Shown here: positions 4,374-57,179 of the stretch, one piece after another
How positions within the stretch are numbered: the stretch's first letter is position 1
How the letters are laid out: each line of letters opens with the position of its first letter
From: an uncultured Clostridia bacterium
GTDB taxonomy: Bacteria; Bacillota; Clostridia; Oscillospirales; Ruminococcaceae
Reading direction: 5' to 3'
Length of the DNA stretch: 64,000 nt
NCBI GenBank assembly: GCA_944382875.1
Contig: CALWNQ010000001.1
Span: 186,001-250,000 of the forward strand
Notes under the pieces: model-generated
Database searches by the model: none
Seen by the model: only the letters and a program-made list of their open reading frames with translations
Told to the model about the DNA's origin: nothing
Position numbers and translations under genes: made by a program

Positions 4374-6644
4374 GTGTTCTTTATTAATTTGCCGGAATCG
4401 GTAGAACAGGCATTTGCGGACCGGGGGATTCCGGCCGCTGAGATCCGCTACACAGCAAAGGCGGATGTTTCAAAAGAAAATCAATACGAAGAAATTTACC
4501 TGGCGCTGACAAACCGGGAACTGTGTATCCTGCGGGGACATGAAAAGTTCATCGAACAGCGGGGAAAAGATACGGTTGTGGAATATCTCTGCACCGATTA
4601 TCGCTGCATCCCCCTCTCGGATATAACAGAGGTGTTAGTCGACAGGCTGTATACCGTATCATCTTTCCTTGTACGGACAAAAGAGGAAGAGATACTGGTG
4701 TGCAGGCTGTCGGCTTCGTTAATCGGGCTTTTTGAAAAGTTCGGAAAACGGATTACGGCATTGCGGGACGGCGAACCGGTTGACGACAGCGGATTGAAAA
4801 ATGAGCACAAATGCTGCCCGAAATGCAAACGGCCATATCCCCATCAGGACCGAAATGTTTGCCCCAACTGTGAGTCAAAGCGGGCGTCTTTTTTCCGACT
4901 TTTAAAGGAATACTTAACCTTTAAAAAAGAAGCTGTTGTGATCTTTGTCATGATTTTCCTGAGCAGCGCGCTCACCTTAATCGTGCCGCTGTTCAGCTCG
5001 CAAATGTTTTATGACCAGGTGCTGACGCCTCCCGGCGACGGCGTTGGCAAATACTATGGAATGCTGTGGCAGATGGTACTTGCTGTTTTCAGCATCAAGC
5101 TGGTATCTACCATCTTCAGTTCCTTTTATGGTATTATTGTCAGCAAAATTTCTTGCAAGGTACTGCACAACCTGCGGGTGAAGATCTTCTCTTCGATGCA
5201 GCGGCTTTCGGTCAGCTTTTTTGCCAGCAAAACCACCGGTACCCTGATGACCCGTATCGATGACGATGCGGACTGGCTTTACTGGTTTTTTGTCGACCTG
5301 GTGCCGATGTATCTGGTGAGCGGTCTGACCATTATTGGACTGGTAGTCATTATGGGAACAATCAGCCTGCCGCTGACCGTCCTGATTTTTGCCGCGATTA
5401 TCGGGGTTGCCTTTCTGGTCGTCAAAGCAGAAAAGCGCCTGAAACAGCTGCAGCGGCGGCAGCATCGGGCCATTCGTTCGATGAAATCCACCATCACCGA
5501 TTCACTGGGCGGCCAGAAAGTGGTCAAATCCTTTGCCCGTGAAAATCAGGAAATCCGCCGTTTTACCGGGAAAAACCAGAATTACTGGCAGTCCCGGATG
5601 AATGTTGGATATTATAATGCGGCCCATTTCCCGGTTATCCGGATGATCTACCGGGTATCAGAAATCATTATTTTCGGACTGGGAGCAGTTTTGGCGGTGC
5701 AGGGACACCTCACACTGGGTGCACTGACCGCGCTGATTGCCTATGCGGATATGACGCTCAACTGTATCGAATATTTCATCAATGCGGCAAACCCGGTGGC
5801 ACGTGCGATGGACTCGGCTTCCCGAATGTTTGAGATTCTGGACACCGAGCCGTCGGTGCGGGAAAGCGACCATCCGGTTCATATTGAACGGATGCGAGGC
5901 GACATTGCAGTTAAAAATATTTCGTTTGAGTATGAAATCGGCCGTCCTGTTATTAAAAATGTCAGCTTTGAAGTAAAATCCGGCCAGATGATTGGCCTTG
6001 TAGGACGGACCGGCGCCGGAAAATCCACCATCATCAATCTGATATCCCGTCTCTATGACGTAACCGAGGGGGAAATCACGATTGACGGTGTCAATATCCG
6101 GAATATTGCAACAGCAGATCTTCGAAGGAATATCGGTGTAGTCACCCAGGAAACCTATCTGTTTATGGATACCATTGCCAACAATATCCGTTATGCACGC
6201 CCGGATGCTTCGATGGAAGAGGTTGTGGCTGCAGCCAAAGCGGCTTTTGCCCACGACTTTATCATGCGCTTCCCGGAAGGATATGACACGATGGTCGGAA
6301 ACGGCGGCGTTCAGCTTTCGGGCGGCGAGAAACAGCGGCTTTCGATTGCGCGGGCAATTCTTCAAAACCCCGCTATCCTGATTCTGGATGAGGCGACCGC
6401 CGCGATGGACACTCAGACGGAGCGGAACATCCAGACCGCCATCGAAAAGCTGCGTGCCGGCAAGACCATTATTTCGATTGCGCACCGGCTATCCACATTG
6501 CGGGATGCGGATCTTCTTGCGGTCATCGACGATGGCAAACTGAGTGAAATCGGCACCCATCAGGAGCTGCTGGACAAACGCGGCGTTTATTACAGCCTGC
6601 ATAAGATCCAGCTGGATTCACTCAAATTCATCAACCAGGAGTGA
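4374..6644 (+). CDS. ABC exporter half-transporter with N-terminal domain and zinc ribbon
   Basis: A 756-residue fused membrane-ATPase exporter subunit. Residues 1-140 form a cytoplasmic, possibly PH-like domain (IYLALTNRELCILRG). Residues 148-166 form a zinc ribbon (Cys148, 151, 163, 166). A six-helix ABC exporter membrane domain (about 185-470) and an ATPase follow, with Walker A GRTGAGKST, signature LSGGEKQR, Walker B ILILDEAT and H-loop SIAHRLST. The GTG start is set by AGGAGGT 7 bases upstream. It is the first gene of a three-gene operon with a DUF1854 protein and a second exporter subunit of the same architecture; a heterodimer is likely. NCBI family names link similar transporters plus DUF1854 to cyanophycin metabolism, but no cyanophycin gene is present here, so the cargo is unknown. 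Confidence 0.88.
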   Translation: MFFINLPESVEQAFADRGIPAAEIRYTAKADVSKENQYEEIYLALTNRELCILRGHEKFIEQRGKDTVVEYLCTDYRCIPLSDITEVLVDRLYTVSSFLVRTKEEEILVCRLSASLIGLFEKFGKRITALRDGEPVDDSGLKNEHKCCPKCKRPYPHQDRNVCPNCESKRASFFRLLKEYLTFKKEAVVIFVMIFLSSALTLIVPLFSSQMFYDQVLTPPGDGVGKYYGMLWQMVLAVFSIKLVSTIFSSFYGIIVSKISCKVLHNLRVKIFSSMQRLSVSFFASKTTGTLMTRIDDDADWLYWFFVDLVPMYLVSGLTIIGLVVIMGTISLPLTVLIFAAIIGVAFLVVKAEKRLKQLQRRQHRAIRSMKSTITDSLGGQKVVKSFARENQEIRRFTGKNQNYWQSRMNVGYYNAAHFPVIRMIYRVSEIIIFGLGAVLAVQGHLTLGALTALIAYADMTLNCIEYFINAANPVARAMDSASRMFEILDTEPSVRESDHPVHIERMRGDIAVKNISFEYEIGRPVIKNVSFEVKSGQMIGLVGRTGAGKSTIINLISRLYDVTEGEITIDGVNIRNIATADLRRNIGVVTQETYLFMDTIANNIRYARPDASMEEVVAAAKAAFAHDFIMRFPEGYDTMVGNGGVQLSGGEKQRLSIARAILQNPAILILDEATAAMDTQTERNIQTAIEKLRAGKTIISIAHRLSTLRDADLLAVIDDGKLSEIGTHQELLDKRGVYYSLHKIQLDSLKFINQE

Positions 6645-7176: not shown

Positions 7177-9375
7177 ATGAATTTTGTTTCCGAAGGGCTG
7201 GCCGAAATCCGGCCGCAGTTGGACGCCGATCCGGTGTACAGCCTGGATTTCAGCCTGGACGGAAAAGGAAGGCCGGTGCGCGGCGTCTGCGCTGTCACCC
7301 AAACGGAGCTGCTGCTCTTCCGGGACGGCAAAAAGGTGTTTCAAGCACTGCTTTCCGAAATTGAGGAATACACCACAACCCAGCTGGTAGGCAGCGGAAC
7401 CTTTGGCATTATCCGGGGCGGAAAGCCGGAACAGCTCTGCATCTGCACCCAGAGTCAGCTCAGCTCTTTTGCCGAGCTGGGAAAACTCCTGGAATATCAC
7501 CATGAAACCGGAATTTTCCCCGAAGCGGATCACGAAGAAGGTGTGCGCAACTGCCCAAAATGCGGCAGCATTCTGCCGGAAGGAACCAATATCTGCTTCC
7601 ATTGTGAGAAAAAAGGGAAATTCCTCTGGCGGGTAGTGAAGCTGTCACTGCGGTACAAATGGGCACTTTTGGCAGCCATTCTGGCGACAGCAACCATCCA
7701 GCTTTTGTGGATTGTCTATCCCTGGTTACAGCGGATCGTCATTGATGACTACATCACTCCGCGGAATGCGGATTATAAAAGTCTGGCGCTGCTGCTCGGC
7801 GGATATCTGCTCTTCCCGTTGGTTATGATGGGGCTGGAAGCACTCAACGAACGCTGCACCTCCCGCGTTTCCTTTTCGGTCGGGCGGGATTTGCGGGATC
7901 TGCTCTTTACCAAGATTCAGGAGCAGTCGATGAAGTCGATTACCAAACGCCCCACTGGCGAACAGATCAAGCGGATTTCCAGCGACACCGAAAAAATCCA
8001 GGAATTTGTGTCCAACCACGGCAAGGAAGCGGTGGTGCGGATTCTTTCCACCATTGTAATTCTCTGCGTGATGCTTTCGCTCAACTGGAAGCTCACCCTG
8101 CTGGTGCTGATCCCGGTTCCGCTTGCCGTTGTGGCCACCCGTGTGATTTTCAAGTATATCCATCGAAAATATTCGCTGGTCTGGAACCGATTTTCCCAGT
8201 CGGAATCCCGGCTGCACGACATTCTCAGCGGTATTATGGTGGTCAAAGTATACGGCAGCGAAAAGCGAGAAATTAAGCATTACACCGGTTATTCCGAGCG
8301 GTTCGCCGACAGCATGTTCAAAGCCGATAAATTCTGGTACCTGTTCTTCCCGATCATCGGCTTTGTTATTATGATGGGCGAGTATTTCTATCTGTATTTC
8401 GGCGGGCAGCAGGTGATTGCCGGTAATTTGACGCTTGGCAGCCTGATCCAGTTTTCCGCCTATATCGGAATGATCTATGGCCCGCTTCGCTGGATCATCC
8501 AACTTCCCCGCTTTATTGCGGAGAGCGGCGTCAGCGCGGCGCGCATCTATGAGGTCATCGATGAAAAGGAAGATGTCGCTGACCGTCCGGATCCGGTTGA
8601 CCTCCAAATTAAGGGGGCTGTTTCCTTTGAAAATGTCGGGTTTGGCTACAAGGTTTACAAGCCGGTCCTCAAAAACATCAGTTTTGAGGTAAAACCCGGT
8701 GAAATGATCGGTATTGTCGGTGCTTCCGGTGTGGGAAAATCCACCCTGATCAACCTGATTATGCGGCTCTATGATGTCAGCTCCGGCGCCATCAAAATTG
8801 ACGGTGTAGATCTGCGGGATATTTCGCAGCACTCCCTCCGCAGCCAGATTGGTGTGGTGCTGCAAGAAACCTATCTGTTCGAAGGAACGGTGCTCGACAA
8901 CATCCTCTACGCCAAACCGGACGCCACGATGGAAGAAGTTGTGCAAGCTGCGAAAACGGCTAATGCTCACGATTTCATCTGCAAGATGCCGAATGCTTAT
9001 CAGGAGTATATCGGCAACAAGGGTTATAAGCTTTCGGGCGGTGAAAAACAGCGGATCGCCATCGCACGAGCCATCCTGCGCAATCCGCGGATTTTAATTC
9101 TGGACGAAGCGACCGCTTCGCTCGATACCGAAACCGAAAAGCTAATTCAAGAGGCACTTGGGCGGCTTATCCAGAACCGGACCACCTTTGCGATTGCCCA
9201 CCGGCTTTCCACTCTGCAGCATGCCGACCGGCTGGTCGTTCTGGATAAGGGGCGGATTGCCGAAATCGGCACCCATCTGGAACTTCTGCGTAACAAATCG
9301 GTTTATTACAACCTGGTTATGGCACAGCGGCAGACTTCCCGGCTGAGTCGGGATCAACAGCCGGCTGCACAATAA
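7177..9375 (+). CDS. second ABC exporter half-transporter with N-terminal domain and zinc ribbon
   Basis: A 732-residue exporter subunit with the same architecture as the protein at 4374-6644. The N-terminal domain is about 110 residues (GVCAVTQTELLLFRDGKK). The zinc ribbon uses Cys126, 129, 140 and 143. Six membrane helices (about 150-430) and an ATPase domain follow, with Walker A GASGVGKST, signature LSGGEKQR, Walker B ILILDEATASLD and AIAHRLST. Both partners keep a catalytic glutamate and a canonical signature, so neither looks like a degenerate half-site. GGAGGG precedes the ATG. A strong terminator follows the stop codon, closing the operon. Confidence 0.88.
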   Translation: MNFVSEGLAEIRPQLDADPVYSLDFSLDGKGRPVRGVCAVTQTELLLFRDGKKVFQALLSEIEEYTTTQLVGSGTFGIIRGGKPEQLCICTQSQLSSFAELGKLLEYHHETGIFPEADHEEGVRNCPKCGSILPEGTNICFHCEKKGKFLWRVVKLSLRYKWALLAAILATATIQLLWIVYPWLQRIVIDDYITPRNADYKSLALLLGGYLLFPLVMMGLEALNERCTSRVSFSVGRDLRDLLFTKIQEQSMKSITKRPTGEQIKRISSDTEKIQEFVSNHGKEAVVRILSTIVILCVMLSLNWKLTLLVLIPVPLAVVATRVIFKYIHRKYSLVWNRFSQSESRLHDILSGIMVVKVYGSEKREIKHYTGYSERFADSMFKADKFWYLFFPIIGFVIMMGEYFYLYFGGQQVIAGNLTLGSLIQFSAYIGMIYGPLRWIIQLPRFIAESGVSAARIYEVIDEKEDVADRPDPVDLQIKGAVSFENVGFGYKVYKPVLKNISFEVKPGEMIGIVGASGVGKSTLINLIMRLYDVSSGAIKIDGVDLRDISQHSLRSQIGVVLQETYLFEGTVLDNILYAKPDATMEEVVQAAKTANAHDFICKMPNAYQEYIGNKGYKLSGGEKQRIAIARAILRNPRILILDEATASLDTETEKLIQEALGRLIQNRTTFAIAHRLSTLQHADRLVVLDKGRIAEIGTHLELLRNKSVYYNLVMAQRQTSRLSRDQQPAAQ

Positions 9376-9422: not shown

Positions 9423-9451
9423 TTGACAGTTTCCGTTTCCTGTGCTATCAT
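9423..9451 (+). promoter_or_regulatory. pnuC promoter
   Basis: Consensus -35 TTGACA (9423-9428), 17-base spacer and -10 TATCAT (9446-9451). It lies about 105 bases before the start codon and so produces a long leader. Confidence 0.8.
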
Positions 9452-9457
9452 AAAAAT

Positions 9458-9545
9458 ACTGCCACCGGGTAGAACAATGCGTTAGCATTCGATACACATC
9501 GTTAGGTCTTAGAAGATGTGTATGCGGGTGCTTATTTTTTTGTGG
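9458..9545 (+). promoter_or_regulatory. structured pnuC leader, candidate riboswitch
   Basis: The leader holds a perfect AATGC-GTTA-GCATT hairpin (9476-9489) and a 9-bp stem ATACACATC (9492-9500) / GATGTGTAT (9515-9523). A possible closing pairing joins GCCACC (9461-9466) with GGGTGC (9526-9531). A T-run follows, and GGAGG (9544-9548) lies directly after. Such a compact fold next to the ribosome binding site of a nicotinamide riboside transporter gene suggests ligand control of translation. The NAD+-II (pnuC-motif) riboswitch is the obvious class to test, but I could not check its consensus. Confidence 0.5.
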
Positions 9546-9555
9546 AGGAATGGTT

Positions 9556-10251
9556 ATGAAACGGGTGCTTTGCTATTTTACGAAAACGGAATGGATGCTT
9601 TGGCTTGGTTCCATGCTGCTAATTCTTTCTTTTTTTCTGCTGTTTGACCGGGAAAACGGAATCACACTGGCGGCTTCGCTGGTTGGTGTCACCTCTCTAA
9701 TCCTTTGCGCAAAAGGAAATCCCTTAGGGCAGCTTTTAATTGTTTTGTTCAGCATTCTTTATGGAATTATTTCCTATACCTGCGCTTATTACGGCGAGAT
9801 GGTTACCTATCTTGGCATGACGGCGCCAATGGCGGTATTTGCGCTGATTTCCTGGCTGCGCAACCCTTTTAACGGCAATCACGCCGAAGTCCGGGTAAAT
9901 ACGCTAAAAATCAGGGAATATTTTGCAATGCTGCTGCTCACAGCGATAATAACCTATGGATTTTACCATATCCTGCGGGCATTTCACACAGCGAACCTGC
10001 TCCCCAGTACATTGTCAGTTGCCACCAGTTTTATCGCCGTATATCTAACCTTTCGCCGCAGCCCCCTTTTTGCGCTGGCTTATGCGGCAAACGATCTGGT
10101 TCTGATTCTGCTCTGGGCAATGGCAACTATTTCGGATGCCGGTTATCTGGCGGTAATGGTCTGCTTTGTTGTCTTTTTTGCAAACGATCTCTATGGCTTC
10201 TTAAACTGGTCCAGAATGCAGCGCCGTCAGCAGGCTGCCGCTGTTTCCTGA
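9556..10251 (+). CDS. pnuC: PnuC-type nicotinamide riboside transporter
   Basis: Integral membrane facilitator for vitamin B3-type precursors (nicotinamide riboside family; a related vitamin is possible). The 231-residue protein has about seven membrane helices. Features typical of PnuC are GNPLGQLLIVLFSILYG, the Tyr-rich helix after it, and the C-terminal WAMATISD...FFANDLYGFLNW segment. The ATG at 9556 sits 7 bases after GGAGG; the in-frame ATG at 9550 is too close to the site. It is a single-gene unit behind a strong promoter and a structured leader, and ends in a terminator. Confidence 0.88.
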   Translation: MKRVLCYFTKTEWMLWLGSMLLILSFFLLFDRENGITLAASLVGVTSLILCAKGNPLGQLLIVLFSILYGIISYTCAYYGEMVTYLGMTAPMAVFALISWLRNPFNGNHAEVRVNTLKIREYFAMLLLTAIITYGFYHILRAFHTANLLPSTLSVATSFIAVYLTFRRSPLFALAYAANDLVLILLWAMATISDAGYLAVMVCFVVFFANDLYGFLNWSRMQRRQQAAAVS

Positions 10252-55904: not shown

Positions 55905-56090
55905 TTCCTTTACCCTGTCCTTTTGCCTGAGAGATTAACGGTTTCCCGCCTTGCACCTTCGGCACCCGATTACCGGGGTTCTCCAGAGCCACATCCGTTT
56001 ATAGTCGCTGTCCGGGCTCCGGACGCCTGAGAGTGTTACTCCTTCGGCAAGCTGCTGCTTTTTCCTACAAACATCTTTTGTTCTGATTCG
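55905..56090 (-). promoter_or_regulatory. tandem glycine riboswitch
   Basis: Two consecutive glycine aptamers on the minus strand. The first carries GCCGAAGGAG...CTCTCAGGC (56048-56025) with a short P3 hairpin after it. The second carries GGAGAACCCC, GGGTGCCGAAGGTGC and CTCTCAGGCAAAAGGAC (55967-55917). A linker of about 10 bases joins them. Together with the terminator/antiterminator choice downstream they control the AGCS symporter by transcription; whether glycine turns it on or off depends on folding I cannot compute. Confidence 0.95.
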
Positions 56091-56882: not shown

Positions 56883-57016
56883 TCTTTTGCGCCGATTTTC
56901 TTCTGTTCTGTCCGGAGATTTTGCCGGATTTCAAAAGATTTTGTCGAATATATGGATTTTACTGAAAAAGGGTAGCCATACCGCAGCAGATTATGGTATA
57001 GTATTTGTGTAAATAA

Positions 57017-57083
57017 TGCGTATAATTTCAGCAATACGGGCTGTAAGTTTCTACCCGCCGGCCGTTATCCAGCGGACTACGCA
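57017..57083 (+). promoter_or_regulatory. purine (guanine-class) riboswitch
   Basis: The aptamer matches the purine consensus. P1 is TGCGTA / TACGCA, then ATAAT, P2 CAGC/GCTG with loop AATACGG, the core AGTTTCTACC, P3, and GACTACG. The C in GACTACG (position 74) points to guanine/hypoxanthine rather than adenine. Downstream, CGCAAAA (57080-57086) can pair with TTTTGCG (57127-57133). GCAGGCGT (57115-57122) can pair with ACGCCTGC (57159-57166), directly before the ribosome binding site, so the switch could act on transcription, translation or both. Confidence 0.93.
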
Positions 57084-57179
57084 AAAGTTCAAGCGCCATC
57101 CACGATTTTCCGCGGCAGGCGTTTTGTTTTGCGCTTCTTGCAGTTTGGGTGCTGAAACACGCCTGCAAGGAGTATTTTT

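What the first reader, a model, noticed from the sequence alone, without database searches (positions are those of the whole stretch)
9458..9545. Compact structured leader before pnuC
A consensus promoter yields a leader of about 100 bases with two perfect hairpins (AATGC-GTTA-GCATT and a 9-bp stem) and a possible closing pairing between GCCACC and GGGTGC that ends just before GGAGG. pnuC genes are known targets of NAD+ riboswitches, mainly in lactobacilli and streptococci. A clostridial case could be NAD+-II or a new class.
Basis: partly seen in the sequence, partly recalled or inferred. Interest (0 to 1): 0.6.

Follow-up and report, generated by a model that had tools for sequence, protein, structure and literature searches.

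The report
Guanidine-IV riboswitch before a PnuC-type transporter
The short RNA in front of this pnuC-like gene is a member of an already described RNA switch class that senses guanidine (guanidine-IV), not a vitamin B3/NAD+ switch, and it probably turns on a specialised PnuC relative that exports guanidine; its one less expected feature is an extra hairpin that competes with the off-signal.

Summary
In detail: a consensus promoter and a ~75-nt structured leader sit before a pnuC-like gene, and the leader is conserved across many genera of gut Clostridia. The GCCACC/GGGTGC closing pair is wrong; GGGTGC pairs with GCATTC as the base of an intrinsic terminator. The NAD+ reading is not supported. 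Rfam gives no hit, but that is uninformative: sugE-associated members of the same family also score nothing. The leader matches published guanidine-IV (GGAM-1/mepA) riboswitches: two hairpins, a covarying ACC:GGU kissing interaction with the same 43-nt spacing as C. botulinum A29-U72, the essential loop G, a terminator as second hairpin, and homologues before sugE/SMR, MATE, DUF1989 and PnuC genes. PnuC was already a reported guanidine-IV neighbour. Two additions are mine. First, most pnuC-type leaders carry a covarying linker hairpin sharing its 3' arm with the terminator, a classical antiterminator; the papers read describe the class as lacking such overlap. Second, the PnuC belongs to a distinct clade that has lost the two tryptophans of canonical PnuC and has an invariant Asp; canonical PnuC genes lacked the leader (0/19). 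Likely mechanism: guanidine-induced antitermination of a guanidine exporter. No ligand was tested.

The parts
9423..9451 (+). Promoter TTGACA-17-TATCAT; transcription would start about 9457-9459, just before P1
9459..9472 (+). P1 hairpin CTGCC-ACCG-GGTAG (first kissing hairpin)
   Evidence: 99.5% of cells paired in 82 pnuC-type leaders, changes on both sides at 2 of 5 pairs
9464..9466 (+). Kissing loop 1, ACC
   Evidence: pairs with GGU 9505-9507; ACC:GGU 107, GCC:GGC 16, GCC:GGU 7, AUC:GAU 1 of 139 leaders scored
9476..9489 (+). P2 linker hairpin AATGC-GTTA-GCATT, proposed antiterminator; its 3' arm is also the 5' arm of the terminator base
9485..9491 (+). P4 5' arm GCATTCG (terminator base), shared with P2
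   Evidence: 99.3% of cells paired, changes on both sides at all 7 pairs
9492..9523 (+). P3 hairpin: upper terminator stem ATACACATC/GATGTGTAT with 14-nt conserved loop GTTAGGTCTTAGAA
9505..9507 (+). Kissing loop 2, GGU; G9506 and U9507 correspond to C. botulinum G71 and U72, G9512 to G77
   Evidence: for coordinates; residue numbers from PMC11611296
9525..9531 (+). P4 3' arm CGGGTGC
9532..9541 (+). T run TTATTTTTTT of the intrinsic terminator
   Evidence: sequence
9544..9548 (+). Shine-Dalgarno GGAGG
   Evidence: sequence
9556..10251 (+). PnuC-family transporter of the guanidine-IV-associated clade (231 aa from ATG 9556; the ORF list also allows ATG 9550)

Best explanation
The leader is a guanidine-IV riboswitch acting as a transcriptional ON switch. 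Without ligand, GCATTCG (9485-9491) pairs with CGGGTGC (9525-9531) under P3, completing an intrinsic terminator, and RNA polymerase stops at the T run before pnuC. When guanidinium is present, the loops of P1 (ACC) and P3 (GGU) kiss, the base of the terminator is held open, and transcription reads into the gene. In this clostridial pnuC subgroup the freed GCATT arm can also be captured by the linker hairpin P2, giving a true antiterminator. The gene product, a PnuC-fold transporter of a separate clade, most likely exports guanidinium. Shown here: structure, covariation, two mutually exclusive partners for one arm, gene contexts, transporter clade. Inferred: the ligand, the direction of switching (from characterised class members), and the transported substrate.
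For: Covarying P1, kissing pairs, P3 and P4. Published residues fit: kissing pairs A29-U72 and C30-G71 and essential G77 in C. botulinum correspond to A9464, U9507, C9465, G9506 and G9512, with the same 43-nt A-to-U distance. One covariance model finds homologues before PnuC, MATE, SMR/sugE, DUF1989, PNPOx-like and other genes, the mixture reported for guanidine-IV. The own genome has a second copy before a MATE gene. P2 is complementary to the shared arm beyond controls: 4.47 Watson-Crick pairs of 5 versus at most 3.71 in 1000 arm swaps; non-consensus arms 4.31 versus at most 3.77. The PnuC clade has SH-aLRT 99; leader found before 43 of 66 lower-scoring and 0 of 19 high-scoring (canonical-type) PF04973 genes of the class sample.
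Against: No ligand was tested and no biochemically validated sequence could be aligned letter for letter; the match to published RNAs rests on residue numbers and text. The pnuC association alone could suggest another ligand. The leaders before PnuC and before SMR genes are compared through a model built on the PnuC-type ones. In predicted energies the terminator form (-26.6) beats the P2 form (-20.7 kcal/mol), so P2 needs help from the kissing interaction or co-transcriptional timing. P2 is missing or weak in about one in six pnuC-type leaders.
Confidence: 0.88

Rival explanations
1. A variant of the guanidine-IV fold (Gd4v-like) that senses another molecule.
For: A published variant, Gd4v, shares fold and terminator, is enriched in gut bacteria and does not bind guanidine well (PMC9788692). 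PnuC genes dominate here, whereas sugE dominates guanidine-IV at large.
Against: [quoted passage not shown] lactis RNA (G62, G66, U67, G72 by my mapping) keeps the guanidine-IV base. Gd4v RNAs precede mainly a transaminase and never sugE; no transaminase appeared among the downstream genes here, and sugE did.
Confidence: 0.07
2. An NAD+-II or NAD+-I riboswitch, or a new NAD+-related class, controlling nicotinamide riboside import.
For: The gene is pnuC-like, and pnuC genes are NAD+-II targets in Streptococcus (PMC7749635).
Against: No Rfam riboswitch match in the leader. The same RNA precedes SMR, MATE and DUF1989 genes. The expression platform is a terminator, not a pseudoknot with the Shine-Dalgarno. 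The leader is not found before high-scoring, canonical-type PnuC genes (0 of 19), and the associated PnuC lacks the conserved W, W, N and Q/N of canonical PnuC.
Confidence: 0.02
3. An ordinary intrinsic terminator or protein-binding attenuator without a small-molecule aptamer.
For: P3+P4+T run is a good terminator by itself (-20.8 kcal/mol).
Against: Near-invariant loop nucleotides and a covarying kissing pair across many families are not needed for a terminator.
Confidence: 0.03

Closest known systems
Guanidine-IV riboswitch (GGAM-1, mepA motif; PMC7736828, PMC11611296)
   Same: Two hairpins joined by a kissing pseudoknot, conserved loop bases at matching positions, second hairpin is an intrinsic terminator, precedes SMR, MATE and PnuC genes, Firmicutes.
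   Different: Most pnuC-type leaders carry an additional linker hairpin that shares an arm with the terminator; the papers read describe the class as working without such overlapping sequences.
Gd4v motif (guanidine-IV variant, ligand unknown; PMC9788692)
   Same: Same overall fold, pseudoknot and terminator.
   Different: [quoted passage not shown] gene contexts differ.
NAD+-II riboswitch (pnuC motif; PMC7749635)
   Same: Lies before genes annotated pnuC.
   Different: Other secondary structure, streptococcal, pseudoknot with the ribosome-binding site (translation control), different PnuC type.
PnuC of Neisseria mucosa (PDB 4qtn)
   Same: Same fold as the predicted structure of the window protein (TM 0.83).
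   Different: 22% identity; canonical N, Q, W, W and S positions are Y, A, A, Y and invariant D here.

Membership tests
Guanidine-IV riboswitch | Two hairpins joined by a kissing pseudoknot supported by covariation | tested here: met
Guanidine-IV riboswitch | Kissing pairs equivalent to C. botulinum A29-U72 and C30-G71, and loop G77, at the same spacing | tested here: met
   A9464-U9507, C9465-G9506, G9512; 43 nt between A and U in both
Guanidine-IV riboswitch | Loop bases whose mutation abolishes or weakens binding in L. lactis (G62, G66, U67, G72) | tested here: inconclusive
   All four bases present by a mapping from published numbering that assumes a one-base shorter loop in L. lactis; the L. 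lactis sequence itself was not available
Guanidine-IV riboswitch | Second hairpin is an intrinsic terminator with a U run | tested here: met
   P3+P4 then TTATTTTTTT
Guanidine-IV riboswitch | Homologues precede guanidine-related genes (SMR/sugE, MATE, PnuC) | tested here: met
Guanidine-IV riboswitch | Binds guanidine at about 60-250 uM and increases readthrough | not testable with these tools
   needs in-line probing and a termination assay
[quoted passage not shown]
   14-nt open loop 9501-9514
Gd4v motif | Non-G at position D1 | tested here: not met
   all candidate G positions are G in the window; the exact D1 column is shown only in a figure I could not see
NAD+-II riboswitch | Pseudoknot with the Shine-Dalgarno sequence | tested here: not met
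   the covarying pseudoknot joins the loops of P1 and P3
NAD+-I / NAD+-II riboswitch | Match to the Rfam model | tested here: inconclusive
   no match at E up to 10, but I did not check that Rfam 15 holds both models

The most novel reading that the evidence does not exclude
The clostridial pnuC-type guanidine-IV riboswitches form a sub-type with a real antiterminator: a conserved linker hairpin competes with the terminator for one arm, so switching is by strand exchange and not only by steric strain; and the PnuC clade they control is a new family of guanidinium exporters.
Probability: 0.5. Interest if true: 0.55.

Novelty: new member of a known kind. Interest (0 to 1): 0.36.

Why it matters
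It removes a false lead (a new NAD+ riboswitch) and shows that these guanidine-IV leaders are missed by the Rfam release used here, so many of them will be read as unknown. It gives a concrete, testable answer to an open question stated by the discoverers of the class, namely how ligand binding prevents termination, at least for one large subgroup. It also marks a clade of genes named as nicotinamide riboside transporters that are probably guanidine transporters, which would matter for NAD+ metabolism annotation in gut bacteria.

Tried and rejected
Rfam search of the leader at E up to 10 gave only chance hits to microRNA and lncRNA models, and SMR-, MATE- and other-associated homologues were also unmatched, so absence from Rfam says nothing about novelty. 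A plasmid search for annotated relatives gave one unannotated record. Checking 14 leaderless, lower-scoring PnuC genes (L297-L310) for other guanidine riboswitches gave no Rfam riboswitch; one of them, L299, does carry an interrupted leader (28.9 bits). An attempt to test P2 with G-U pairs allowed was only weakly discriminating (14 of 2000 swaps reached the native value); Watson-Crick pairs and energies discriminate clearly. In one search the P4 counts are off by one column and should be ignored; one search has the right ones.

Full report
Observation. The region holds a TTGACA-17-TATCAT promoter at 9423-9451, a leader from about 9459, GGAGG at 9544-9548 and a PnuC-family gene. ATG 9556 is the better start: it lies 7 bases from the Shine-Dalgarno, ATG 9550 only one. 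The leader folds better than all 200 shuffles. The proposed closing pair GCCACC/GGGTGC is not complementary. GGGTGC instead pairs with GCATTC as the base of a terminator.

Homologues. A DNA search of 298 genomes of the same family found the leader in 54 genomes and 37 genera. A covariance model built from 31 of them found it in 70 of 391 genomes of the class and 20 of 398 of the phylum sample. Named carriers include Ruminococcus flavefaciens, Ruminococcus bromii, Gemmiger formicilis and many ruminant-gut Clostridia.

Anatomy. P1 CTGCC-ACCG-GGTAG (9459-9472); linker hairpin P2 AATGC-GTTA-GCATT (9476-9489); P3 (9492-9500/9515-9523) with the conserved loop GTTAGGTCTTAGAA; P4 (9485-9491/9525-9531), which continues P3 into an intrinsic terminator followed by TTATTTTTTT; kissing interaction ACC 9464-9466 with GGU 9505-9507. 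On 82 pnuC-type leaders 96.9% of cells are paired, 18 of 24 pairs show changes on both sides, and no shuffle of 500 reaches any measure; sliding the partners destroys the signal. Over all classes the kissing triplets go ACC:GGU 107, GCC:GGC 16, GCC:GGU 7 and AUC:GAU 1; 8 of 139 leaders scored cannot pair at all three positions.

Identity. The literature search led to guanidine-IV riboswitches (GGAM-1, mepA motif; PMC7736828, PMC11611296). These have two hairpins joined by a kissing pseudoknot, a terminator as second hairpin, several highly conserved loop bases, and genes for SugE, MATE and PnuC downstream. In the C. botulinum RNA, A29-U72 and C30-G71 are the kissing pairs, an A29G/U72C double mutant restores the interaction, and G77 is essential. 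The window has A9464-U9507, C9465-G9506 and G9512, with the same 43-nt spacing; the A-U to G-C change made in that paper occurs naturally in L002 and others. Downstream genes here are PnuC (88, two of them recognised only through frameshifted reading frames), MATE (25), PNPOx-like (8), SMR (5), SfLAP-like (2), radical SAM (2), DUF1989 (1) and a few others. DUF1989 proteins include carboxyguanidine deiminases (my knowledge). The genome of the window carries a second copy before a MATE gene. I therefore file the leader as a guanidine-IV riboswitch. Rfam's silence does not argue against this, because SMR-associated homologues are equally unmatched.

Not the variant. [quoted passage not shown] The window leader has an open loop and keeps every candidate guanine. 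The mapping to L. lactis numbering (G62, G66, U67, G72) is my inference from the text.

How it may switch. The discoverers noted that the proposed binding structure contains the terminator and suggested steric exclusion, leaving the mechanism open; later papers describe the class as not relying on overlapping sequences. In the pnuC-type leaders the 5' arm of the terminator base has a second partner. In 72 of 88 a linker hairpin uses at least 3 bases that later pair in the terminator; the SMR leaders have none (0 of 5), MATE leaders 12 of 24. For 77 leaders the native linker makes 4.47 of 5 Watson-Crick pairs with its own arm; with arms taken from other leaders the mean is 3.51 and the maximum of 1000 trials 3.71. 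For the 26 with a non-GCATT arm the figures are 4.31, 3.43 and 3.77. The same arm makes 6.96 of 7 pairs with the terminator 3' arm. One arm with two conserved partners is the signature of a terminator/antiterminator pair. The swap test does not model relatedness, and whether this hairpin appears in the published consensus figures I could not see.

The transporter. The predicted structure (pLDDT 94.8) matches only the PnuC crystal structure 4qtn (TM 0.83). Leader-associated PnuC proteins and some leaderless relatives form a clade (SH-aLRT 99). In 61 aligned proteins N179, D180 and D211 are invariant (231-aa numbering). Canonical proteins have W, W, N and Q/N where this clade has A173, Y176, Y85 and A93, and S or A in place of D211 (where numbers are 2 higher). 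In the class sample the leader lies before 43 of 66 lower-scoring PF04973 genes but 0 of 19 high-scoring ones, which are canonical where inspected. The 66 are not one clade: several of the 23 leaderless ones are other Pnu types. An invariant acid together with loss of the canonical aromatic residues would suit a small cation, but that is inference. That guanidine-IV-associated PnuC proteins may export guanidine was already proposed.

Verdict. A new, unannotated member of a known riboswitch class before a gene type already linked to it. The linker antiterminator and the sharp PnuC sub-clade are the parts worth an experiment.

Noticed in passing
window 56998-57099 (+) and 55905-55996 (-): A purine riboswitch and a glycine riboswitch aptamer above Rfam gathering scores.
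   Followed up: no
G000:C16:35561-35652 (-); L123:4562-4653 (-): Second guanidine-IV-like leader in the same genome, before a MATE gene; its kissing triplets are AUC:GAU, so the normally invariant G of the kissing pair is an A. It may be a specificity variant.
   Followed up: partly
L134, L138, L140, L299: PnuC-type leaders with insertions in the terminator loop; in L138 the insert can form a hairpin, as in the Gd4v motif.
   Followed up: no
L019, L025: The same leader precedes a SfLAP/LysE-like transporter instead of PnuC, possibly another guanidine exporter type.
   Followed up: partly
L074, L077; L068, L071, L072, L082, L090, L094, L120, L141: Guanidine-IV-type leaders before radical SAM and PNPOx-like genes.
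   Followed up: partly
L091 (G352:C28): Two copies of the leader about 2.9 kb apart in one locus; a PnuC gene directly follows the second.
   Followed up: no
window 4374-6644 and 7177-9375: Two adjacent ABC-exporter-like genes, each with a four-cysteine zinc-ribbon-like stretch (CPKC...CPNC, CPKC...CFHC) before the membrane domain.
   Followed up: no
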